In this document: piece by piece, positions 1,614 to 56,170 of the stretch
Position numbering within the stretch: the first letter of the stretch is position 1
Layout of the letters: every line of letters starts with the position of its first letter
Origin: Pseudodesulfovibrio sp. S3
Lineage (GTDB): Bacteria; Desulfobacterota; Desulfovibrionia; Desulfovibrionales; Desulfovibrionaceae
Direction: 5' to 3'
Assembly: GCF_004025585.1 (NCBI RefSeq)
Contig: NZ_QTZO01000003.1
Coordinates: 124,001 to 188,000, forward strand
Length of the DNA stretch: 64,000 bases
Position numbers and translations under genes: made by a program
The notes under the pieces: generated by a model
Seen by the model: the letters and a program-made list of their open reading frames with translations, nothing else
Told to the model about the DNA's origin: nothing
Database searches by the model: none

Positions 1614-2765
1614 TTATTCAGAAATATCAATTCGAAAAGCGATGGAGTGCCAACTGCGACAGCGAGGGCAATTGAAAAACAGTTGATCACGTTTCAGACC
1701 GCAACGGCGGCAAAAGAACCTGCGAACATTTCGGGCGCGGCCAATGAAGAAGGAAAGCTGTTCCTTGTAGAAAGGGGTCAATGTCTGATCAGCCCGTGAC
1801 AGCTCGAAAAGCTCCAACCGCGCAAGCCAGAAGTTTGGTTGCAGCATCAAGGCCTTTTCAAGCCAGGATCGGGCGTTGTCAAGGTCACCGATCTTGAGAA
1901 GCAACAAGGCCCCATAGTAAAGCAACAGTGCGTCCGGCTCCTGAGTTTCAATAATCGGCAAAAGAACAGCAACAAGCTTGTTGTCTGAACAAGCACTGGA
2001 CCACTCGGTCTCTTCACCGAAAGAGGCCTGCTTGGCCTTTTCCGCCTTGTCGAGAACAAGCAGGAGTCCTTCGAAAAGCACAAAACGCAATTCAGGCTCA
2101 ACCTGTTGCAATGCCTGGCCGAGTATGTCGGCAACCTTGTTGACGCCGCCGCCTTTGTATGCCTGGACAAGTTGTTCCAACCAAGCCTCCACGGCACCGG
2201 GATAGGCCCGGATGGCATGGCGAAGCGAGCGGTTGCCCTGTGCATCATTTCCTTCGGCGAATCGATCCATGGCAAGGCGGACCAGGTAATGCGCCTGTGG
2301 AAGGGGCAAATTGAGTTGCCCGTAGGACTCAGCCGCTTTCTCGAAATCTCCACGTTCAGCAGTGAGCCGAGCCATTTCCTGATGAATGGAGCTGGGATCC
2401 TGGCCGAGCGATCGGGCTTCATGGAAGGCCTTCTCCGCTCGATCAAGAAAACCGGCGCGGCGAAAATCGCGCCCAAGTTCGAACCAGGCGCGAGCCTTGA
2501 ATTCACGGTCAAGTCCCGGCCTGACAATGAGGCTGTTTCTGATTTGGATGGCGCGCTCGATTTCTCCCTGGGAACGGTAAAGACTCCCGAGCGCAAGATA
2601 GATTTCAACCGCTTCCGGATCATTTTGGACAACCTTGCTCAGCTCTTCAATAGCCGCGCGAGTATCCTGCACGGGTAAGGATTCGCCTCCGCCAGCAGCA
2701 CGGGCTGCCTGAAGGTTCAAATCAAAGCTCGGTGTCTTGTGACGACTGAAAAAATTCCAAACCAT
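1614..2765 (-). CDS. lapB: LapB (YciM)-like TPR protein with C-terminal rubredoxin-type zinc site
   Basis: LapB controls LPS synthesis in enterobacteria by presenting LpxC to the FtsH protease. This 383-residue protein has several TPR units, including IYLALGSLYRSQGEIERAIQ near residue 58, which matches the LapB signature. It ends in a metal-binding tail with CRRCG and CPRC pairs, the rubredoxin-like site of this family. E. coli LapB begins with a membrane helix. Here the N-terminus (MVWNFFSRHKTPSFD) is polar and I see no membrane segment. The gene starts 8 bases after lapA with AAGGA before the ATG. The family call is firm; the LpxC/FtsH role is inferred. Confidence 0.85.
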   Translation of the reverse strand: MVWNFFSRHKTPSFDLNLQAARAAGGGESLPVQDTRAAIEELSKVVQNDPEAVEIYLALGSLYRSQGEIERAIQIRNSLIVRPGLDREFKARAWFELGRDFRRAGFLDRAEKAFHEARSLGQDPSSIHQEMARLTAERGDFEKAAESYGQLNLPLPQAHYLVRLAMDRFAEGNDAQGNRSLRHAIRAYPGAVEAWLEQLVQAYKGGGVNKVADILGQALQQVEPELRFVLFEGLLLVLDKAEKAKQASFGEETEWSSACSDNKLVAVLLPIIETQEPDALLLYYGALLLLKIGDLDNARSWLEKALMLQPNFWLARLELFELSRADQTLTPFYKEQLSFFIGRARNVRRFFCRRCGLKRDQLFFNCPRCRSWHSIAFRIDISE

Positions 2766-2773
2766 GAAAATCC

Positions 2774-3127
2774 TTAAAGTTGATCGTCTTCTTTCACTTC
2801 ATTGTACGGCTGATCTTCACTGATGGGCATATTGCGCAGAGAATTGAGTTCCTGTTCGAGACTGGCCATGCGAGTCCGGCATTCCTTGAGGTTGGCTCCA
2901 GAACGGAATTTATCAATGATGAAATAAATGATGGTCAGCAGGGAGCCTGCGACAAAGGCTGCCAGAATAAGAACGCCAAAGGGCAGGGGGATTGAATGCA
3001 GGGTAGCCACATAGGGTATATCCAGGACCAAAGTCAGCCCCTGTAGCAGGACATCATTATTCTGACTGAAAAAAAGGATGGAAAAGACAAAAAGAGCCAA
3101 CAGAAATAACACTTTGATAAAACGCAT
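2774..3127 (-). CDS. lapA: LapA-domain inner-membrane protein
   Basis: This 117-residue protein matches the LapA (DUF1049) family, a small membrane partner of LapB in LPS assembly. It has a first membrane helix at about residues 4-22 followed by SQNNDVLLQGL, typical of the family. A second helix lies near residues 48-70, and a cytoplasmic tail with coiled-coil character (CRTRMASLEQELNSLRN) follows. A good AAGGAG site sits just before the ATG. It is 10 bases after the HIT gene and 8 bases before lapB, so the pair is almost certainly co-transcribed. Because LapB here lacks its own anchor, LapA may hold it at the membrane; that is inference. Confidence 0.85.
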   Translation of the reverse strand: MRFIKVLFLLALFVFSILFFSQNNDVLLQGLTLVLDIPYVATLHSIPLPFGVLILAAFVAGSLLTIIYFIIDKFRSGANLKECRTRMASLEQELNSLRNMPISEDQPYNEVKEDDQL

Positions 3128-3753: not shown

Positions 3754-6441
3754 TTAGACCTGACTGCCCGGGATAAGATTTGTGGCCAGCTCCTTTTTCA
3801 ATTTTTTCGCCATGTTCAATTGATCCGTCCGGGTTTCCACCTTTCCATCGATCTTGGCGACCATGAGCTTGTCCAAGATAATCGCATACATCGGCCCCGG
3901 TTCGACCCCCATCTTTTGAAGATCATTGCCGTTGATGTCAATTTTCATATAACGCAACCGGGCAAGATATTGGGAAATATTTCTTCGAATGTGTTCTTTC
4001 CTGCTCCGAGCCATCAGAAACAACACGCCTTCGACCGGGATGGGATGAAGGATCGCGTAGAGTCTGCTCAGCTTTGATGCCCCCTCCTTCCAGGTCATCA
4101 ATTTCATAAGGGCGTCACCAATCATGTCGCGGAGTTGATAAAAATCCCGTTCCTCCCTTTGGGTAAAATGCAGCCTTGTGGAAATCTGGTCTATTTGATT
4201 GCGTTTGATGCCCATGGTCATACCGAGAAGGTAAAGCTTCCAAGGAGTTATAGCCGGTTCCAGGTAGAGCAGCTTGTACCAGTTGTGGACCTTGACCAGT
4301 TCCGTCAGAATCTGAATCCGTTCCCGGGTCAATTTGAGCAGGGGATGGATTGCCTCCATGATACCAAGTTCCTGCATTCGGTTAAGGCATGCCAGCGGAT
4401 CTTCCTCGTTCATTATCCATTGCAGCTCATGCATGACACGGGTACCGGACAGCTTGCTGAACAACTGGAGATTCACGGCATTCTTAATGAGACGCATAGT
4501 CTGACCACCGATCTGAAAATCAAAACGGCGTTCGAACCGGATGGCCCGGAGAATACGGGTAGGGTCTTCCACGAAGCTTAAGGAATGCAAAACACGAATG
4601 GTCCGGTTTCGTATATCCCGCTCGGCACCGAAAAAATCCACCAACTGACCGAACCGGCCGGGGTTGATGCGCAAAGCGAGCGCATTGACCGTAAAATCAC
4701 GCCGATACAGGTCCATTTTTATTGACGACAGTTCCACGGTGGGCAGGGCGGCAGGATATTCATAATATTCAAGGCGGGCGGTGGCCACGTCAACGCGTTG
4801 ACCGTCTTCCATAATGACTACCGCAGTTTTAAATTTGGAATGGGCCTTGACCCTGCCTTCGATCCTCTCTGCAAATTTTCTGGCGAATTCGATACCGTCC
4901 CCCTCAACGACAAGGTCGAGATCAAGATTGGGCCTGCCGAGGAGAATGTCACGGACGAATCCGCCCACCGCATAGACTTCCCAACCAAGTTCGGCCCCGA
5001 GTTCCCCGGCTGACTTCAGCAGATCAAGCATCTTTTGCGGCAAACGATTTTTGACCTGGGAACCAATGTCTCTTACGCGTCGGCTGTCCGGCATGAGAGA
5101 ATCGGGAATGCGGGCGGGCTCCTCAATGAGCATGTTCATCAAATCCGTCCGTGTGATTACGCCTACCAGTTGGCCGTCCTCCACAACGGGAAGCATTCGT
5201 TGACGATTGCTCAGAATGATTTCCATGACTCTATATAAATCGGTCTTGACCTCCACCGTATCGAATTTCCTGGTCATGTACTCGCTCAAACCGATATCAC
5301 CCAGATGATGAGTGATTGCCTTGTCAGCAGTCTTATGTCCCATGATTCCAATACACTGCATACTGTCTTTCGCCACCACCGGCACATCTTTCAAGCCATA
5401 ACGCGTCATGAGCTCCACGGCGTCTTTCATGGTCTTGTCGCCCTCAATGACCACTGGAGGGCGCGACATGAGACTGTCCACAACGATTTGCGGATTGATC
5501 TGGGAGTAGAAGAGGGCGAACAGGTCGTCACGTACTTCAGCCAGAGTCTTGTCCTTGATGGTGGCCGAAGCTGCGGCAGTATGACCGCCTCCGCCCAGAG
5601 AGGCACATATTTGCCCTACATTTACATCAGGATTTCGTGATCTCGAAACCACATGAATGCGGTCCGCCATCCTTCCCAATGCGAAAACGACCTTGACCTT
5701 TTCCATATCCATAAGCTTGTGAACCAGCAGCGCGAAATCGGGCACGAACATGTCTGTAGACAATTCGGTAATAATGACATCAATGCCATGGATATCATAT
5801 GTCTTTGCATTTTTAAGCAATTCACCGAGATAGGTAATTTGCTCGGCGGACAGTTCGTGAGAAAGAAGATCGCTGATGACCTCAATGTCCATGCCCTGGC
5901 TTTTCAGCCAACCGGCAGCCTCGAAATCATGCGGCGTAGTTGTGTTGAAGCCGAATGACCCGGTATCTTCATAAATACCAAGGCCGAGAAGGGTGGCCTC
6001 TTCTCTATTGAGAGACAACCCTTGTTCCCGAATCTCGTGAACCAGGATGGCGGTTGTGGACCCCCAAGGTTTGACCACGCTTTTTTCGGCGGGAAGATCC
6101 TCGTCGCTGTCAGGATGGTGGTCATAAAGGTGTATACGCAGATTCTTGTTATCCAGCACAGGACGGACATGCGGAATTCTCGAACGCTGCCGGGTATCGA
6201 CGACCACCAGAAGCTCCACGGATTCGGGGTCGATATCCTTGAACGCCTTGAAATTAAAAAGATAGGTTGTGCTTTCAATAAAGAAATTGCGCAGGCTGGT
6301 TTCCTGACTGCCAGGGAAGATCAGCACCGAATCGGGATAGATTTTGCTGGCCGCCACCATTGCTGCAAGGGCATCAAAGTCCGCATTGGCATGGGCTGTG
6401 ATCACGGTCGGAGCTGATATCTTTTCAATTTTGTTTTTCAT
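3754..6441 (-). CDS. DHH phosphoesterase - CBS pair - tRNA nucleotidyltransferase/poly(A) polymerase fusion
   Basis: This 895-residue protein has three parts. Residues 1 to about 320 form a DHH/DHHA1 phosphoesterase: AHANADFDA near 17-25, YDHH at 106-109, and GGGGH near 285. Two CBS domains follow to about 435. From about 490 comes a class II nucleotidyltransferase: AVGGFVRD then DLDLVVEG supplies the metal-binding acidic pair, followed by DFTVNALALRI and the RNA-binding signature DPTRILRAIRF. Fusions of this layout are known from Aquifex and delta-proteobacteria, where related enzymes add the terminal A of tRNA CCA ends. I infer A-adding or CCA-repair activity with a nuclease-like DHH module. 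It starts 25 bases after xerD. A second nucleotidyltransferase lies at 50911. Confidence 0.9.
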   Translation of the reverse strand: MKNKIEKISAPTVITAHANADFDALAAMVAASKIYPDSVLIFPGSQETSLRNFFIESTTYLFNFKAFKDIDPESVELLVVVDTRQRSRIPHVRPVLDNKNLRIHLYDHHPDSDEDLPAEKSVVKPWGSTTAILVHEIREQGLSLNREEATLLGLGIYEDTGSFGFNTTTPHDFEAAGWLKSQGMDIEVISDLLSHELSAEQITYLGELLKNAKTYDIHGIDVIITELSTDMFVPDFALLVHKLMDMEKVKVVFALGRMADRIHVVSRSRNPDVNVGQICASLGGGGHTAAASATIKDKTLAEVRDDLFALFYSQINPQIVVDSLMSRPPVVIEGDKTMKDAVELMTRYGLKDVPVVAKDSMQCIGIMGHKTADKAITHHLGDIGLSEYMTRKFDTVEVKTDLYRVMEIILSNRQRMLPVVEDGQLVGVITRTDLMNMLIEEPARIPDSLMPDSRRVRDIGSQVKNRLPQKMLDLLKSAGELGAELGWEVYAVGGFVRDILLGRPNLDLDLVVEGDGIEFARKFAERIEGRVKAHSKFKTAVVIMEDGQRVDVATARLEYYEYPAALPTVELSSIKMDLYRRDFTVNALALRINPGRFGQLVDFFGAERDIRNRTIRVLHSLSFVEDPTRILRAIRFERRFDFQIGGQTMRLIKNAVNLQLFSKLSGTRVMHELQWIMNEEDPLACLNRMQELGIMEAIHPLLKLTRERIQILTELVKVHNWYKLLYLEPAITPWKLYLLGMTMGIKRNQIDQISTRLHFTQREERDFYQLRDMIGDALMKLMTWKEGASKLSRLYAILHPIPVEGVLFLMARSRKEHIRRNISQYLARLRYMKIDINGNDLQKMGVEPGPMYAIILDKLMVAKIDGKVETRTDQLNMAKKLKKELATNLIPGSQV

Positions 6442-6466: not shown

Positions 6467-7390
6467 TTACATGGATGATCTCGGATGATATTTCTGATGC
6501 AATGTCTTCAGCCTGCTCGATTCAACATGAGTGTAGATTTCAGTGGCGCTGATATCCGCATGTCCGAGAAGCAGTTGCACGGTCCGCAAATCAGCACCGC
6601 CCTCAAGCAGATGGGTGGCAAAGGAGTGTCGAAAGGTGTGCGGAGAAATCGACCTTCGAATCCCGGCCAATGTAGCAAATTTCTTGATCAGTTTCCATAC
6701 GCCCTGTCGGGTAAGCCCCTTGCCTGAACGATTGAGAAACATGAAATCTTCCAAAGGCTTGAAAGAAGGACGGGTAAATTCAAGATATCTGTTCAAATAG
6801 TCCTGTGCCGTAAAGTGAATGGGAATCAAACGATCCTTGGACCCTTTGCCGAATACCTTGAGCATCCCTACCTGCGGATCGAAGTCAAGCACCTTCATCT
6901 GAATCAATTCGGATACACGGAGTCCGGCGGCATAGAGCAACTCCAGCATGACCTTGTCGCGCATCCCGAGCAGGGTGGAGGTGTCCGGCAGGGCAAGTAC
7001 TCGACTGATTTCATCCCTGGTCAAGAATTCCGGTAGTTTTTTAGGCAACTTGGGGTTTTCCAACAAATGACCGGGATCTTCCTTGAACCATTTCTGGTCC
7101 ATGGCGTATGCAAAGAAACCTCGAAGGGAAGAAAGATGCCTGGCCAGGGAGCGGCTTTTCAATCCCTTTGCCCGAAGATAGGTCAGATAGAGAAAGAGGG
7201 GCCTGTCCGAAAGATCCTTGAGCGCAAAGGATTTTTCTTCGAGAAAGGCCAACAGGGAATGCAGGTCCTGGGCGTAACCAGACAGGCTGTTTTCGGACAA
7301 CCCTTTTTCGATGAGGACGTGCTCAAGGTAGCTGTCCACCCATGGGTGATTGAAATCAATATTGTTTTTTATTTTTTCGTATTTTTTCAT
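6467..7390 (-). CDS. xerD: Tyrosine recombinase, XerC/XerD type
   Basis: Xer recombinases resolve chromosome dimers at dif near the division septum. The protein is about 307 residues from the ATG at 7390 (a GTG at 7396 is also in frame), the usual Xer length. The N-terminal SAM-like core-binding domain contains VLIEKGLSENSLSGYAQDL. The catalytic domain shows AAGLRVSELI, GKGSKDRLIPI, SPHTFRHSFATHLLEGG and LLGHADISATEIYTHV, giving the Arg, Lys, His-x-x-Arg, His and Tyr set. The RVSELIQMKV form fits XerD slightly better than XerC, but this is not certain. No FtsK-independent partner recombinase is nearby; ftsK itself is at 25.9 kb. A 17-base palindrome lies just upstream at 7403-7419. Confidence 0.9.
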   Translation of the reverse strand: MKKYEKIKNNIDFNHPWVDSYLEHVLIEKGLSENSLSGYAQDLHSLLAFLEEKSFALKDLSDRPLFLYLTYLRAKGLKSRSLARHLSSLRGFFAYAMDQKWFKEDPGHLLENPKLPKKLPEFLTRDEISRVLALPDTSTLLGMRDKVMLELLYAAGLRVSELIQMKVLDFDPQVGMLKVFGKGSKDRLIPIHFTAQDYLNRYLEFTRPSFKPLEDFMFLNRSGKGLTRQGVWKLIKKFATLAGIRRSISPHTFRHSFATHLLEGGADLRTVQLLLGHADISATEIYTHVESSRLKTLHQKYHPRSSM

Positions 7391-7402
7391 GATCACGGCT
7401 AG

Positions 7403-37219: not shown

Positions 37220-37603
37220 GGGGGCGCACTGGTTTCGACGGGGATAGTTGAAGCCGAAGCCGCAGGTCGAGGTTGGTCGATGGCCTCGTAAAAATCGACC
37301 ACAAGATAATTGCAAACGACAATTACGACTACGCAATGGCTGCCTAAGGGCAGAATTGCTACCTGACACCTAGCGTGTCACGATTCTACTGCTGACGCCT
37401 TATAAGCGGATAGAATCGACAAACTATAGGGCTAGCATCACAATTGGGTTCCTTCGGCTGTGGTGCGAAATAATAGGAGAACTAGTCTAGGGGCTGTTTG
37501 GCCCGGTGCAATCCTCTAGGCGAAACACTATTCCGGGCCTAAACCTGTAGACGCTTTCGCGGATCGTTCTCGGACGGGGGTTCGACTCCCCCCGCCTCCA
37601 CCA
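37220..37603 (+). ncRNA. ssrA: tmRNA (one-piece)
   Basis: tmRNA rescues stalled ribosomes and tags the unfinished protein. The 5' end GGGGGCGCACTGGTTTCGAC and 3' end GGTTCGACTCCCCCCGCCTCC plus encoded CCA pair as the tRNA-like domain. The tag reading frame is at 37312-37347, GCA to TAA, and encodes ANDNYDYAMAA. This is a one-piece form of 384 bases, as in most bacteria. A perfect 20-bp terminator follows. Confidence 0.97.
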
Positions 37604-49992: not shown

Positions 49993-50883
49993 CTAGAGAG
50001 GAAAAATCGAACCTGAATACAGAACGGTTTCTTTCTCACCACGACGTAAAACGAGCCCCCCATTCTGGGAAAGACCTGAAAGAACAGCCTCATAGGAGAT
50101 GTCATCTCCCTCCCTGACCAAGATAGTTCGTCCGAACCAGGCGAGCTTGCTCTCGACCATTGCGGTGAATCGAGTGGGTGGAATCTCGTCGAGCATGACT
50201 GCATACACATTTTTCCCACGGTTTACAAGGTTTTCCAATAGCTTCACCGGGCCACCGGAAAAGGAGGGAATTGTGATTTTTGCGGCGGATACAGAATGAT
50301 CTTCTCGCAATTCGACATCCTTCGGACAATCCGTAAGATTCAACCCCAGTCCCACAATCGACACTTCATTTCGTTCTTCAATCAAAATACCGCCGACCTT
50401 CCGGCCATTTTGTAGAATATCATTCGGCCATTTGATTTCAATCGACGCTCCAAGTCCTTCCAACACCTCAGCAACGACATAGCCGGCCACCAACGGAAGA
50501 AGATGTGGCATCGCTTCGGCCCACTCGCCCTGTACCGGCGGAGAAGGCAACACAATGGAGGCATGGAGGTTTCCCGGCAGAGACTTCCATGGTCGCCGCA
50601 ATTGCCCCCTGCCGCTGAATTGTTCCGCACATAAGACCGCTCCCCACTCGCCAAGCTGGCCTTTCTGGACCATTTCCGAAGCCAATTCCATGGTTGTTTC
50701 ACATGCACCGACAACAACGACAGAACTGTCCACAGAAGAGTTACCGGCCAGAAAATCCACAGGGAACCCGCCACCGAGAGGCGTCCAAGGCCCAAGCTCC
50801 TGCAGGTCCGAATCCCATACAGGATGGACACTTTCAAGGCCTTCAGGGGCCGTTTTCATAAGAAAAATTCCTGGTGGAAGCAT
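49993..50883 (-). CDS. birA: Biotin-protein ligase (BirA without repressor domain)
   Basis: BirA attaches biotin to the lysine of carboxylases. The protein has 296 residues from the ATG at 50883, or 288 from one at 50859. It has no N-terminal DNA-binding domain. The ligase part shows GRGQLRRPWKSLPGNLHASIVLP (GRGQLRRPW is the biotinyl-AMP loop), IEIKWPNDILQNGRKVGGILIE and a C-terminal SH3-like domain. It lies just upstream of pyc, its expected substrate. Confidence 0.92.
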   Translation of the reverse strand: MLPPGIFLMKTAPEGLESVHPVWDSDLQELGPWTPLGGGFPVDFLAGNSSVDSSVVVVGACETTMELASEMVQKGQLGEWGAVLCAEQFSGRGQLRRPWKSLPGNLHASIVLPSPPVQGEWAEAMPHLLPLVAGYVVAEVLEGLGASIEIKWPNDILQNGRKVGGILIEERNEVSIVGLGLNLTDCPKDVELREDHSVSAAKITIPSFSGGPVKLLENLVNRGKNVYAVMLDEIPPTRFTAMVESKLAWFGRTILVREGDDISYEAVLSGLSQNGGLVLRRGEKETVLYSGSIFPL

Positions 50884-50910: not shown

Positions 50911-52020
50911 ATGAATATTTACCTGGCTGGCGGCGCTGTCCGCGATCTCCTGCTGGGCAGGCCCCTGTCCGATAGAGACTATCTGGTCACGAAAACCACC
51001 CGCAAGGAATTTCAAAAAGCTTTTCCCAACGCCCAGGAAGTAGGACTAACGTTCCCGATCTTCCTTGTGGACAAGACCGAATTTTCCTTTCCCAGAAGCG
51101 ACTCTCTAGCCAATGAATTAAGAGCCCGCGATCTGACTGTCAATGCACAACTGCTCGACGAGAACGGGGAACTCATCTGCCATCCTAACGGCCTTGACGA
51201 TCTCAAAAGACGTATCCTTAGACCTGCTTCCGCACACTCCATGGAAGAAGATCCGCTTCGTGTGTTTCGTGCTGCCCGATTCTGGAGCCAGCTCCCCGAC
51301 TTCACACCCCACGAAGAGCTGCTTGAAGCCATGCAATCCGCAGCCCGCAAAGACTTGCTCAAAACCATCTCCGCCGACCGAATCGGTCAGGAGATGCGCA
51401 AGGTGCTCGAAGCGCCTGCTCCCGGAAACTTCCTGCGGCTTCTATCAAAAACGGATTGCCTGTTGCCGTGGTTTTCAGAGCTGGACCCCGCGCAAACCAT
51501 CCCTGCAGGTCCTCGCCCCTATCACGATACAAATGTTCTGGAGCACACCTGTCAGGTCATGGACAAACTGGCAGGAGATGCCGTCGCGGTTTGGATGGGG
51601 CTGTGTCACGACCTGGGAAAATCGCTCACGAATGAAGAAAATCTCCCGCACCACTATGGGCACGACCTCTCAGGCGTCCCTTTGGCCGGATCATTGGCTC
51701 AACGCATCAGGCTTCCCAATGCCCTCAAGATCGCCGGCATGAAGGCAGCGAGATGGCACATGGTTGCCGCCAATTTCGATGAGCTTCGACCGGGAACCAA
51801 GGTGGATCTGCTGATGGACGCCCATCTTTCGGGCATCCTGGCTCCCCTTTTCCGTCTGGTCCTGGCCGATCACGACAAGGACTTTCTTTCTCGGGCAAAA
51901 AGAAACCTGGAAATGATTCTTCCCATCAAGCTTGCACCAACAGACATGAACCACGGAGCAGAATCCGGCAAAAAACTCAGGCAGCTTCGCGCACACGTCC
52001 TTACTGATGACGTCTTATAA
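50911..52020 (+). CDS. tRNA nucleotidyltransferase (CCA or CC-adding) with HD domain
   Basis: The 369-residue protein has LAGGAVRDLLLGRPLSDRDYLV, with the GG-x-VRD and metal-binding DRD. LRARDLTVNAQLL and DPLRVFRAARFWS follow, the RNA-binding start. An HD domain follows near residue 225 with TCQVMDKL and GLCHDLGKS. This is the class II nucleotidyltransferase of the CCA family. Together with the fusion at 3754 it suggests separate CC- and A-adding enzymes, with CC-adding inferred here. An ATG at 50902 is also possible. No strong ribosome site. It is divergent from birA. Confidence 0.85.
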   Translation: MNIYLAGGAVRDLLLGRPLSDRDYLVTKTTRKEFQKAFPNAQEVGLTFPIFLVDKTEFSFPRSDSLANELRARDLTVNAQLLDENGELICHPNGLDDLKRRILRPASAHSMEEDPLRVFRAARFWSQLPDFTPHEELLEAMQSAARKDLLKTISADRIGQEMRKVLEAPAPGNFLRLLSKTDCLLPWFSELDPAQTIPAGPRPYHDTNVLEHTCQVMDKLAGDAVAVWMGLCHDLGKSLTNEENLPHHYGHDLSGVPLAGSLAQRIRLPNALKIAGMKAARWHMVAANFDELRPGTKVDLLMDAHLSGILAPLFRLVLADHDKDFLSRAKRNLEMILPIKLAPTDMNHGAESGKKLRQLRAHVLTDDVL

Positions 52021-52136
52021 TCTCCTGCATCTTTTTGACAAATATAGCTGAAACGTCTACTAAAATATCAACTAGTATTCGGATGGCACACCATCCCCCA
52101 TCACTACAGCATTTCGATTAAACTGGAGATCACTGA

Positions 52137-53048
52137 ATGAGACTTGTCACACGATCCGATTTCGACGGTTTGGCCTGCGCCACCCTGCTTAAACAACTGA
52201 ACCTCATCGACGACTATCTCTTTGCACATCCCAAAGATTTGCAGGACGGCAAGGTGGAAGTCACCGAAAAGGACATCCTGGCCAATGTCCCCTATGTGGA
52301 AGGATGTGGACTCTGGTTCGACCATCACACCAGCGAGACCGACCGACTGGGCGACATTGAATTTGAAGGAGCCAGCAAACCACTGCCTAGCTGTGCCCGG
52401 GTTATTTACGAGTATTACGGAGCCAGTAAATTCCCGGCCTCATATGCATCCTTCGTGGACGCCGTGGATAAAGTGGATTCTGCCAACCTGACCGCCGATG
52501 AAATAGCCAACCCCACCGGCTGGATTCTTCTGGGTTACATCATGGACCCAAGGACCGGATTGGGGCGCTACCGGGATTTCCGCATCAGCAACTACCAACT
52601 CATGTTGGACATGATCGAATACTGCCGCAGCAAAACCGCAGAAGAAATCATGGAAATTCCCGACGTCAAGGAACGGATAGAAAAGTATCAGGAAGACCAG
52701 ACTAATTTCATTCAGATGCTCAATGATAACGCCACAGTAGAAGGCAATGTGATCATCCTGGACCTGCGCGATCAGGATCCGATCTACTGCGGTAACCGTT
52801 TCATGATTTATACACTTTTCAGCCAGTGCAACGTCAGCATCCGAGTCATATGGGGCTTCAAGAAACAAAACGTGGTATTCACGGTCGGCCACTCCATTCT
52901 CAACAGAACCAGCAAGGTCGATATCGGCGCTCTCATGCTTTCCTTTGGCGGAGGTGGTCACAAGGCCGTCGGCACCTGCCAGGTTGCGGACAGTGAAGCC
53001 TCGGCAACACTCAAGAAAATGATAGACCACATCAACACAAACGCCTGA
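52137..53048 (+). CDS. Stand-alone DHH phosphoesterase
   Basis: The 303-residue protein has DHH motifs in order: VTRSDFDGLACATLL, LWFDHHTSETD, VDAVDKVDSANLT and a C-terminal SFGGGGHKAVGTCQV. These fit the DHH/DHHA1 family of Mn-dependent phosphoesterases, which includes NrnA/RecJ and exopolyphosphatases. It probably cuts short nucleotides or nucleotide-like substrates in the cytoplasm. It follows the nucleotidyltransferase by 116 bases on the same strand and starts after GGAG. The related DHH module at 3754 is fused to a nucleotidyltransferase. Confidence 0.88.
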   Translation: MRLVTRSDFDGLACATLLKQLNLIDDYLFAHPKDLQDGKVEVTEKDILANVPYVEGCGLWFDHHTSETDRLGDIEFEGASKPLPSCARVIYEYYGASKFPASYASFVDAVDKVDSANLTADEIANPTGWILLGYIMDPRTGLGRYRDFRISNYQLMLDMIEYCRSKTAEEIMEIPDVKERIEKYQEDQTNFIQMLNDNATVEGNVIILDLRDQDPIYCGNRFMIYTLFSQCNVSIRVIWGFKKQNVVFTVGHSILNRTSKVDIGALMLSFGGGGHKAVGTCQVADSEASATLKKMIDHINTNA

Positions 53049-53168: not shown

Positions 53169-53942
53169 TCATTGTCCCCTCAAAACGGTCATGGCCCTAT
53201 TCGCCTCGGCTTTGCGGTTGGCATAGAGTTTCTTGCAAAAACGACGAATGACATCCTCTACTTCCTTCACTGGCGGCAACTCCCTGACCTGCGGCAAGCC
53301 ATACCCCTCAAAGTCGATCGGCATGAAACACATATCCTTATCAAGCGTAGACCCGTCCACGAGGCTGAGGTCACCCATGATCTGCTCCCGCTCGAACTGA
53401 TCAGGATTCATGCCCTTGACCTGCCGAAGAATCGCAGTGGTTGAAACTGTCTCGTTCACCTTCCTGATCTTGTGGTTGATCAGGCGGGCTATTTCCTCAA
53501 GGCGGGTATAATGCATGGTTAACCGCTTTCTCCCCGGGCTTTCAGGGTCATTGTAATGCCGACCATGCACATATTCGTTCACAATGGCCTGCAATGCACC
53601 ATACGCCTTGAAAACACAACGAATGTATCGACCGCGGGCCGTCAAAGAAAATGGAACGGAAGTATAAATATGCGGAGGAGCACCCTCTGCAGGTAGGATA
53701 TCGGAAGGCTTCAAACCAAGAGATTCGCAAAAATCACTGACGGCATGATCATCAATCAGCAACAAACGCAGTGTGGAGGCTGCTTGAAACAAAAGTTCCA
53801 CCGTGGGCAGGAATTCCTTCACCATGCCGGAAAATGCCTCAAGGGCGTTGTCCATCTCCTTTCTTGTGCCGAAAAAGGAATCGGCCATATCAGCCACCAC
53901 TTCCGCCTGAAACTGATCGGCAAACTCTTTGATATTAGGCAT
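53169..53942 (-). CDS. Conserved-looking 257-residue protein of unknown function
   Basis: I do not recognise this gene. It encodes a soluble helical protein with no signal or membrane segment. Landmarks are FADQFQAEVVADMADSF at the N-terminus, HIYTSVPFSLTARGRYIRC near residue 90, RHYNDPESPGRKRLT near 135 and FMPIDFEGYGLPQVRELPP near 205. The last part has VIRRFCKKLYANRKAE. It is single, convergent with the DHH gene and divergent from the succinyl-CoA synthetase gene. Confidence 0.65.
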   Translation of the reverse strand: MPNIKEFADQFQAEVVADMADSFFGTRKEMDNALEAFSGMVKEFLPTVELLFQAASTLRLLLIDDHAVSDFCESLGLKPSDILPAEGAPPHIYTSVPFSLTARGRYIRCVFKAYGALQAIVNEYVHGRHYNDPESPGRKRLTMHYTRLEEIARLINHKIRKVNETVSTTAILRQVKGMNPDQFEREQIMGDLSLVDGSTLDKDMCFMPIDFEGYGLPQVRELPPVKEVEDVIRRFCKKLYANRKAEANRAMTVLRGQ

Positions 53943-54088: not shown

Positions 54089-56170
54089 ATGTTGCTGAAT
54101 GAACACAAGAGTAAAATTCTTTTTGAAAAGGCCGGGATTCCAGTCCCTCAGGGCGTGATCGTTTTTCCCGGTGAAGAAGCGGATTTCAAGCCAGGCTTCG
54201 CCCTTCCCTGGTTTCTGAAATCCCAAGTCCTGGTCGGCGGCCGTGGCAAGGCCGGCGCCATTCTGCGCATTGACGATGCCGACGACTTTCCCGAGGCCGC
54301 TGTCAAACTATTCCGCCTGGATATCAAAGGGGAAACAGTCCCCTTTATCCGTGTAGAACCCGGTGCGATGATCGAACGTGAATTCTATCTATCCCTGACC
54401 GTTTCCCGAGAACGCAAATGTATTCTCCTCACCGTAGGCCGCGAAGGCGGCGTGGAGATTGAAAACCACGGCAAAGACAACCTGTTTGTCCAGGAGGTCG
54501 CGCTGCCCGGAGGGCTGGCCCCCAACCAGATAAGAGCGGCTTTCTTCCACCTCGGCCTGGAAAAAAGTCAACTCAGCTCTTTCGGGGCATTGTTGACCTC
54601 TCTGTTCAAGGGAATGCTCGACAATGGGCTGCTCATGGCCGAGATCAACCCCCTGATCACCACTCCTGACGGCGAATTCCTGGCCTTGGACGGCAAGGTG
54701 GAGATTGACGACAATTATGTCGATCTCAACCCGGGTATGGATAAATATTATCAGGAAGAAAACTCCACACCCGAAGAAAACAAGGCCCGAGACGCAGGTT
54801 TGTCCTTTGTCAAACTCTCGGGCTGGGTCGGCCTCATGGTCAATGGTGCTGGCCTGGCCATGGCCACCATGGACATGCTTAACTTTTCAAAACTACCGGC
54901 CAGCAATTTCCTGGACCTAGGCGGAGCGGCTGACCAGAAACGCATGGAAATCGCCCTGGAGTTGCTCTTTGGGGACACCCAGGCCAAAGCGGTTTTCATC
55001 AACCTTTTCGGCGGAATCCTTTCCTGCGAAAAAGTTGCATTGGCTATGAAGGGCGCCCTTGCCGGGGCTGCCCCCCCAAAGCCCCTCGTGGTCCGCATGT
55101 CCGGCAAGGACGCCGAATCCGGCTTGGAAATCCTCAAAAATCTCCATGTGGACAACCTCCACATGGCCACCGACATGCAAGAGGCCATCGCAACCTTGAA
55201 AACCCTGAAGCCCAAGGCCCCCCCTGCCGTCGACTTTCCCGCCCCCATGGATAGCCCCCTCGGCAAAGCACCCAAAAATGTTGGTTACCGCAGTTCCGCG
55301 CTCTTCGACATCGACAAGGACACCCCCATTCTGGTTCAGGGCATCACCGGTCGAGAGGGGCAACTCCACACCCGCCTCATGCTTGAATACGGAGCCAATG
55401 TGGTTGCTGGCGTGACCCCCTTCAAGGGCGGACAAGAAGTGTTGGGTGTTCCAGTCTACAACTCCATAGCCGAAGCCAAGCGTTGCCATCATATCGGCGC
55501 CAGCATTATCTTTGTTCCGCCCCGCATGGCAGCGGATGCCGTGGCTGAAGCAGCAGGCAACGAAATCCCCTGGGTCATCTGCATTACCGAGGGTATCGTA
55601 CAGCATGATATGCTGACCACCTTCGAACAGATCAAACGGTCCCCCACCCGCGTCATTGGCCCGAACACGCCGGGCCTGATCGTGCCCGGACAAACCAAGA
55701 TAGGCATCTTGCCCACCACGCCTTTCACGGATGGCCCTGTGGCCATTCTGTCCAGAAGCGGCACGTTGACTTACGAGGTTGCAGACCGGCTGACTTCGGT
55801 CGGCATCGGCCAATCCCTGTGTGTCGGCATCGGTGGTGATCCTTTCATCGGGATCAATTTTATTGATATGTTCGAAATGATTCGTAATCATGACAAGACC
55901 AAGGCCGTGATCGTGCTCGGTGAAATCGGTGGGCAGGCTGAAGAGAATCTGGCTGAATACGTCGTCCGCACCGGGTTCGACAAACCAGTCATTTCATTTA
56001 TCGCAGGCCAGACCGCTCCTCCGGGAAAACGACTTGGACATGCAGGAGCCATCCTGGATACTGGCGGCGGCATTGAAAGCAAACTCAAAACCATGAGCAA
56101 CGCCGGTTTCGCTGTCTGTCCCAGTCTTGAGGCTGTTACAGAAATGACTTCAAAGGCTCTGAGATTATAG
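54089..56170 (+). CDS. Succinyl-CoA synthetase fused beta-alpha (SucC-SucD) chain
   Basis: The 693-residue protein has the beta subunit first (residues 1 to about 372: [71 protein letters not shown]). The alpha subunit follows from about 403 ([40 protein letters not shown]). The phosphohistidine is H651. Bacterial enzymes are normally two separate proteins. The AGGAG before the ATG supports the start. It could make succinate plus ATP from succinyl-CoA, or act on a related acyl-CoA such as acetyl-CoA. Confidence 0.85.

What the first reader, a model, noticed from the sequence alone, without database searches (positions are those of the whole stretch)
3754..6441. DHH phosphoesterase joined to a tRNA nucleotidyltransferase, mirrored by neighbours at 50911-53048
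At 3754 a DHH module, two CBS domains and a class II nucleotidyltransferase form one chain. At 50911-53048 a second nucleotidyltransferase is followed by a stand-alone DHH protein. The same pairing, once fused and once side by side, suggests a shared job such as trimming and re-adding RNA 3' ends or removing short RNAs. CBS domains often sense adenine nucleotides, so ATP level could gate it. Separate CC- and A-adding enzymes are known in Geobacter and Aquifex; the DHH role is not settled.
Basis: partly seen in the sequence, partly recalled or inferred. Interest (0 to 1): 0.62.

Follow-up and report, generated by a model that had tools for sequence, protein, structure and literature searches.

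The report
Split tRNA CCA-end repair enzyme pair
The window carries what looks like an already described two-enzyme system that rebuilds the CCA end of tRNA, one enzyme adding CC and the other (with extra DHH and CBS modules) adding A, while the DHH gene beside the CC enzyme looks like a separate enzyme that clears a signalling by-product.

Summary
3754-6441 (minus strand) encodes 895 residues of DHH-DHHA1-CBS-CBS-nucleotidyltransferase; 50911-52020 a second nucleotidyltransferase; 52137-53048 a stand-alone DHH protein. These two are the only PF01743 nucleotidyltransferases found in the genome. The short one has lost the flexible loop (4 residues where two CCA-adding structures have 21), the published hallmark of bacterial CC-adding enzymes. 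The fusion keeps its loop and best matches NCBI's 'A-adding tRNA nucleotidyltransferase' model, though below its cut-off. Most likely this is a split CC-/A-adding system, known from delta-proteobacteria; DHH(Nrn)-CBS-nucleotidyltransferase chains are also in print. The claimed 'same pairing, fused and side by side' is not supported. The stand-alone DHH protein is another subfamily, 52% identical to the pGpG hydrolase PggH of Vibrio cholerae. It is absent from 4 of 23 genus genomes that keep the CC-type gene, and near a detected nucleotidyltransferase in 2 of 80 named relatives examined. The fusion's conserved neighbour is xerD (17 of 17 loci tested). 45 of 46 distinct tRNA sequences found encode CCA, so the pair probably repairs ends. 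What the fused DHH and CBS modules do remains open.

The parts
3754..6441 (-). DHH-DHHA1-CBS-CBS-nucleotidyltransferase fusion, 895 aa; predicted A-adding tRNA nucleotidyltransferase
5515..6405 (-). NrnA-like DHH-DHHA1 module of the fusion (residues 13-309); catalytic motifs invariant in 34 of 34 aligned fusions of the order
5128..5481 (-). CBS pair of the fusion (about residues 321-438); TRTDL of CBS2 invariant in 34 of 34
4336..4977 (-). Class II nucleotidyltransferase head and RNA-binding part of the fusion (residues 489-702), flexible loop region present (19 residues)
50911..52020 (+). Second nucleotidyltransferase, 369 aa, flexible loop deleted; predicted CC-adding enzyme
52137..53048 (+). 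Stand-alone DHH protein of the PggH (pGpG hydrolase) family, 303 aa; judged a separate function
52035..52040 (+). TTGACA, possible -35 box in the 116-nt spacer before the PggH-like gene; TTGAC present in 16 of 19 related spacers. No convincing -10 box in the window itself
6467..7396 (-). xerD, upstream neighbour of the fusion on the same strand in 17 of 17 loci tested
49993..50883 (-). birA-type biotin ligase, neighbour of the CC-type gene also in the 6 family members outside the genus that were examined

Best explanation
Two nucleotidyltransferases share the building of the tRNA CCA end. The 50911-52020 enzyme, which lacks the flexible loop, adds C74 and C75 and stops. The fusion at 3754-6441 then adds A76. 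Because the tRNA genes found already encode CCA, the pair mainly repairs trimmed or damaged ends. The fused NrnA-like DHH module is probably an active phosphodiesterase on a very short RNA or nucleotide, and the CBS pair probably binds an adenine nucleotide; their substrates, and any control of A-addition, are not known. The stand-alone DHH gene is a separate function: a PggH-type enzyme that splits pGpG, the product of c-di-GMP breakdown, placed beside the CC-type gene in one genus. Shown here: gene content, loop deletion, motif integrity, sequence relationship and gene-neighbour pattern. Inferred: every enzyme activity.
For: Exactly two PF01743 proteins in the genome. Loop region 4 residues in the short enzyme, 21 in 1miv and 6ibp, 19 in 3h37, 1vfg and the fusion; loop absence is stated as the hallmark of bacterial CC-adding enzymes (PMC7014341, passages, Introduction). 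Fusion: best model NF041569 'A-adding tRNA nucleotidyltransferase', 865 bits, protein 13-881 on model 3-876 of 880, so the model spans the whole DHH-CBS-NT chain. Fusion plus a loop-shortened second enzyme in 35 of 41 genomes searched, which would be odd if the fusion added CCA alone. Delta-proteobacteria with separate CC- and A-adding enzymes and no poly(A) polymerase are described (PMC8208693, passages). tRNA genes: 45 of 46 distinct sequences end in CCA. Stand-alone DHH: 52% identical to PggH over 301 residues; 23 GGDEF matches in the genome.
Against: The fusion is below the model's curated cut-off (865 against 1440). Its closest solved relative is 3h37 (274 bits; 199 and 193 for 4wby and 1vfg), which I recall as the Thermotoga maritima enzyme; that enzyme carries Nrn and CBS domains and is called CCA-adding (PMC8208693). 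Three of 41 genomes showed only the fusion (G008, G035, G039; G035 is 94% complete) and two (G025, G038) pair it with a loop-bearing second enzyme. No activity was measured.
Confidence: 0.75

Rival explanations
1. The fusion is a full CCA-adding enzyme, like the Thermotoga protein of the same architecture, and the short enzyme is an auxiliary or partly redundant CC-adding enzyme.
For: Best solved match is 3h37 (Thermotoga by recall); loop region of 19 residues, as in 3h37; Thermotoga's native enzyme has Nrn and CBS domains and is CCA-adding (PMC8208693, passages); 3 of 41 genomes showed only the fusion.
Against: Best family model is the A-adding one (below cut-off); a loop-shortened partner is present in 35 of 41 genomes and in 23 of 25 in the genus, the two exceptions being 81-82% complete.
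Confidence: 0.2
2. One reading: DHH and nucleotidyltransferase genes form one RNA 3'-end trimming and re-adding pathway, once fused and once side by side.
For: Adjacency in 19 of 19 genus genomes that have the DHH gene, spacer 73-120 nt; two Pelotomaculum loci have a nucleotidyltransferase about 2.4 kb from a PggH relative.
Against: Different DHH subfamilies; 4 of 23 genus genomes lack the DHH gene but keep the CC-type gene; no PggH-like gene within about 1.5 kb in 6 of 6 family members outside the genus; 78 of 80 named relatives without a detected nucleotidyltransferase in the stretch held; TTGAC in 16 of 19 spacers.
Confidence: 0.05
3. The stand-alone DHH protein is a general dinucleotide or short-RNA hydrolase rather than a pGpG-specific one.
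For: Other DHH enzymes, NrnA and NrnB, cleave short RNAs as well as pGpG (PMC6256023 and PMC12709177, passages). Relatives at 55-62% identity occur in many phyla.
Against: 52% identity to PggH, described as pGpG-specific in citing papers; an NrnA-like protein is already encoded; 23 GGDEF matches. The residues that set PggH specificity were not checked, as the original paper is not held.
Confidence: 0.25

Closest known systems
Split CC-adding and A-adding tRNA nucleotidyltransferases (Geobacter sulfurreducens and other delta-proteobacteria, Aquifex aeolicus)
   Same: Two class II nucleotidyltransferases in one genome, one with the flexible loop deleted; the arrangement is described for delta-proteobacteria, with and without a poly(A) polymerase (PMC8208693, passages).
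   Different: No third enzyme of the family was found here, whereas Geobacter also has a poly(A) polymerase (PMC8208693). Activities are untested.
NF041569 A-adding tRNA nucleotidyltransferase; Nrn-CBS-nucleotidyltransferase chains such as the Thermotoga maritima enzyme
   Same: Same domain order over the whole chain: model positions 3-876 of 880 matched. Nrn and CBS domains in the Thermotoga enzyme, and DHH-DHHA1 in tRNA nucleotidyltransferases generally, are mentioned in print (PMC8208693; PMC12709177).
   Different: Scores 865 bits against a cut-off of 1440; the Thermotoga enzyme is called CCA-adding, this one is predicted A-adding.
PggH of Vibrio cholerae (PDB 7d62), pGpG-specific phosphodiesterase
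   Same: 52% identity over 301 residues, E 8.2e-105 in the PDB search; DHH and GGGGH motifs kept.
   Different: Other gene neighbourhood (a CC-type nucleotidyltransferase in one genus); specificity untested.
NrnA, bifunctional oligoribonuclease/PAP phosphatase (NF053633)
   Same: The fused DHH-DHHA1 module matches the model at 2e-18 with motifs intact.
   Different: 66 bits against a cut-off of 350, and fused to CBS and nucleotidyltransferase; a separate, better NrnA-like protein (120.7 bits, also under the cut-off) is encoded elsewhere.

Membership tests
Bacterial CC-adding tRNA nucleotidyltransferase (50911-52020) | Class II head with motif A (GGAVRD..D.D), motif C-type RDLTVNA and motif D-type EEDPLR | tested here: met
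   Sequence; PolyA_pol E 9.2e-12 and PolyA_pol_RNAbd 1.3e-9; motif lettering partly recalled, EDxxR and loop from PMC7014341
Bacterial CC-adding tRNA nucleotidyltransferase (50911-52020) | Deletion of the flexible loop | tested here: met
   4 residues against 21 (1miv, 6ibp) and 19 (3h37, 1vfg); the same in 32 of 32 rows of this type from the order
Bacterial CC-adding tRNA nucleotidyltransferase (50911-52020) | Adds CC, not A | not testable with these tools
   Needs an assay
A-adding tRNA nucleotidyltransferase (3754-6441) | Passes the NF041569 curated cut-off | tested here: not met
   865 bits against 1440, although the whole model is covered; so I say it probably works as one, not that it is a certified member
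A-adding tRNA nucleotidyltransferase (3754-6441) | Flexible loop present and a CC-adding partner in the genome | tested here: met
   Loop region 19 residues; partner at 50911-52020
A-adding tRNA nucleotidyltransferase (3754-6441) | C-terminal part that excludes tRNA lacking CC (PMC7014341) | not tested
   A structural property; no model was made
PggH-type pGpG phosphodiesterase (52137-53048) | Full-length similarity with DHH and GGGGH motifs | tested here: met
PggH-type pGpG phosphodiesterase (52137-53048) | c-di-GMP signalling in the same genome | tested here: met
   23 GGDEF matches
PggH-type pGpG phosphodiesterase (52137-53048) | Cleaves pGpG only | not testable with these tools
   Needs an assay; the original paper is not held
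Anti-phage defence proteins | Match to a PADLOC model | tested here: not met
   0 matches for 3 of 3 proteins

The most novel reading that the evidence does not exclude
The fused NrnA-like DHH module acts on the same tRNA as the nucleotidyltransferase, removing wrong or damaged 3' nucleotides or short CCA fragments, and the CBS pair switches the chain between trimming and A-addition according to adenine nucleotide level: a built-in, energy-sensing editor of tRNA ends.
Probability: 0.1. Interest if true: 0.65.

Novelty: new member of a known kind. Interest (0 to 1): 0.2.

Why it matters
It is mostly a clean example of a known arrangement. Its use is as a test bed: the DHH and CBS modules keep their motifs in 34 of 34 aligned fusions of this order, yet in Thermotoga such modules are reported as not needed for CCA addition (PMC8208693), so what they do is a real, testable gap. 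It also shows that two DHH genes near nucleotidyltransferases need not mean one pathway.

Tried and rejected
Operon reading of 50911-53048: weakened, not excluded, by the 116-nt spacer and by TTGAC in 16 of 19 spacers (3.3 expected from dinucleotide shuffles). The 19 are related, so these are not independent; in the window itself the best promoter score is reached by 7% of shuffles, and 3 of 19 spacers (L013, L018, L021) lack TTGAC.

Fused DHH as the cell's only nanoRNase: rejected, since an NrnA-like protein is encoded beside a gene that I read as truB (120.7 bits, below NF053633's cut-off of 350). Orn: no NF003765 match. Poly(A) polymerase reading: disfavoured by the models and, for the short enzyme, by its loop deletion. 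PAP-like rows with 23-25 residues in the loop region occur in four other genomes of the order (L028-L031; the PAP label is my recall of motif style). Anti-phage reading: no PADLOC match. No structure was predicted: loci from the genome search are not on that tool's list of allowed inputs, and a single-sequence model of 895 residues would be weak.

Rows dropped and limits: searches kept one row per distinct motif string and only frames that matched a motif pattern. Five fusion loci (L039, L047, L084, L085, L091) and two second-type loci (L032, L033) are therefore absent from them, and one search also lacks L207, L211, L215-L217, L221, L222 and L231. One search aligned 34 of the 40 fusions (these five and the truncated L041 left out). 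One search tested xerD in 17 of the 40 fusion genomes, those whose locus had flank. The match list was cut by the tool. In one search, identical tRNA sequences count once.

Full report
WHAT IS THERE. The 3754-6441 frame on the minus strand encodes 895 residues with DHH, DHHA1, two CBS domains, the PolyA_pol head and its RNA-binding part in that order. At 50911-52020 lies a 369-residue second nucleotidyltransferase and at 52137-53048 a 303-residue DHH protein. A search of the whole genome (3.68 Mb, 43 contigs, rated 100% complete) finds exactly two PF01743 proteins, these two.

THE SHORT NUCLEOTIDYLTRANSFERASE IS OF THE LOOP-DELETED, CC-ADDING TYPE. From motif A to motif C it spans 73 residues, against 92 in 1miv and 6ibp (both named CCA-adding enzymes), 95 in 3h37 and 94 in 1vfg. 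In an alignment the flexible-loop region holds 4 residues, against 21 in 1miv and 6ibp and 19 in 3h37 and 1vfg. Second enzymes of this type gave rows from 32 genomes of the order, and 32 of 32 have 4 residues there (23 in the genus, 9 outside); three further genomes have a second enzyme with 12, two have one with 21, and four have an extra PAP-like enzyme with 23-25. PMC7014341 (passages, Introduction) says that absence of this loop is the hallmark of bacterial CC-adding enzymes and blocks the switch to ATP.

THE FUSION IS MOST LIKELY THE A-ADDING PARTNER. Its best family model is NF041569, A-adding tRNA nucleotidyltransferase, 865 bits over residues 13-881, but the curated cut-off of 1440 is not reached. 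Its loop region holds 19 residues, as in 35 of 35 fusion rows. Against an A-only role, its closest solved relative is 3h37 (274 bits; 199 and 193 for 4wby and 1vfg). I recall 3h37 as Thermotoga and 4wby and 1vfg as Aquifex; one search gives no organisms. The native Thermotoga chain has Nrn and CBS domains and adds CCA, and those domains are reported as not required for it (PMC8208693, passages). For an A-only role speaks the partner: of 41 genomes searched, 35 have the fusion plus a loop-shortened second enzyme (32 with 4 residues, 3 with 12), two have the fusion plus a loop-bearing one (G025, G038), three showed only the fusion (G008, G035, G039; 82, 94 and 84% complete) and one showed neither (G014, 81% complete).

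REPAIR RATHER THAN SYNTHESIS. Rfam finds 49 tRNA matches in the genome. ARAGORN on 47 stretches that cover them gives 46 distinct sequences, 45 ending in CCA; the exception is the weakest Rfam match (31.7 bits), for which ARAGORN gives no amino acid. The pair therefore probably repairs ends.

THE FUSED DHH AND CBS MODULES. In 34 aligned fusions the residues H17, N19, D21, D23, D82, D107-H108-H109, the EDTG motif, the GGGGH motif and TRTDL of CBS2 are invariant. All are from one order, so this is moderate evidence that the modules work. The DHH part resembles NrnA (2e-18). Other Pfam DHH matches in the genome are four: an NrnA-like protein and, by my reading of the sequences and neighbours, RecJ, a manganese-dependent pyrophosphatase and a protein next to polA. 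Orn was not found. What the fused modules do is not known.

THE STAND-ALONE DHH GENE IS A DIFFERENT THING. It is 52% identical over 301 residues to PggH of Vibrio cholerae, called a pGpG-specific phosphodiesterase in papers that cite the original work (PMC10294637, PMC10600005 and PMC12709177, passages); the original is not held. BLASTP with the fused DHH part gives one meaningful match, 58 residues at 29%. The genome has 23 GGDEF matches, which fits c-di-GMP turnover.

THE PAIRING IS LOCAL. Of 41 genomes, 20 have this DHH gene: 19 of 25 in the genus and one outside. In 19 of 19 it lies 73-120 nt downstream of the CC-type gene. Four further genus genomes (G011, G017, G021, G023) keep the CC-type gene without it; the last two of the 25 (G008, G014) are 81-82% complete and showed neither. 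In the tree of the CC-type enzymes G011 pairs with a genome that has the gene (support 99/97), which points to loss there; for the other three, loss or later gain is not resolved. The genome outside the genus has no nucleotidyltransferase detected within about 5 kb (L075). The six family members outside the genus have birA and pyruvate carboxylase beside the CC-type gene and no PggH-like gene within about 1.5 kb. Among 80 named PggH relatives (kept of 585) two, both Pelotomaculum, have a detected nucleotidyltransferase, about 2.4 kb away. The spacer carries TTGAC in 16 of 19 genomes (3.3 expected), consistent with a promoter of its own but weak in the window itself. The fusion has xerD upstream on the same strand in 17 of 17 loci tested.

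VERDICT. This is a new instance of the known split CC-/A-adding arrangement with the known Nrn-CBS architecture, next to a PggH-type gene. Library searches for the architecture (0 papers; 24 papers, 20 listed; 1 paper) and for tRNA nucleotidyltransferase with pGpG (1 paper, whose one mention is of DHH architectures) showed me no paper that links PggH with CC-adding genes; I read passages of few of these, and most subscription papers are not in that library.

Noticed in passing
L244 (G000:C1:118115-118187), outside the window: A tRNA-like sequence after Thr-Tyr-Gly tRNA genes, with an unassigned four-base anticodon in ARAGORN, no encoded CCA and only 31.7 bits; perhaps a decayed tRNA.
   Followed up: partly
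53169-53942: Convergent gene after the PggH-like gene, 257 aa, no Pfam or NCBIfam match; 36% identical copies lie in the same neighbourhood in 3 of the 4 genus loci that lack the PggH-like gene.
   Followed up: partly
54089-56170: Single chain with ATP-grasp, CoA-binding and CoA-ligase domains, like fused succinyl-CoA ligase subunits.
   Followed up: no
37220-37603: tmRNA gene with tag ANDNYDYAMAA.
   Followed up: no
L177 and L185 (Pelotomaculum): A CBS-containing nucleotidyltransferase, cut by the locus edge, about 2.4 kb from a PggH relative; independent of this genus.
   Followed up: no
L072, L073, L074 (G033, G028, G037): Another second-nucleotidyltransferase type in one family of the order, with a shortened loop region (12 residues) and a different sequence upstream of it; perhaps an independent loop loss.
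   Followed up: no
L026 (G000:C25:5284-5691): A further DHH protein beside what I read as DNA polymerase I; its family was not scanned.
   Followed up: no
1614-3127: Downstream of the fusion and a HIT-domain gene lie a LapA-like (below cut-off) and a TPR protein with a weak LapB zinc-ribbon match, suggesting a lapA-lapB pair.
   Followed up: no
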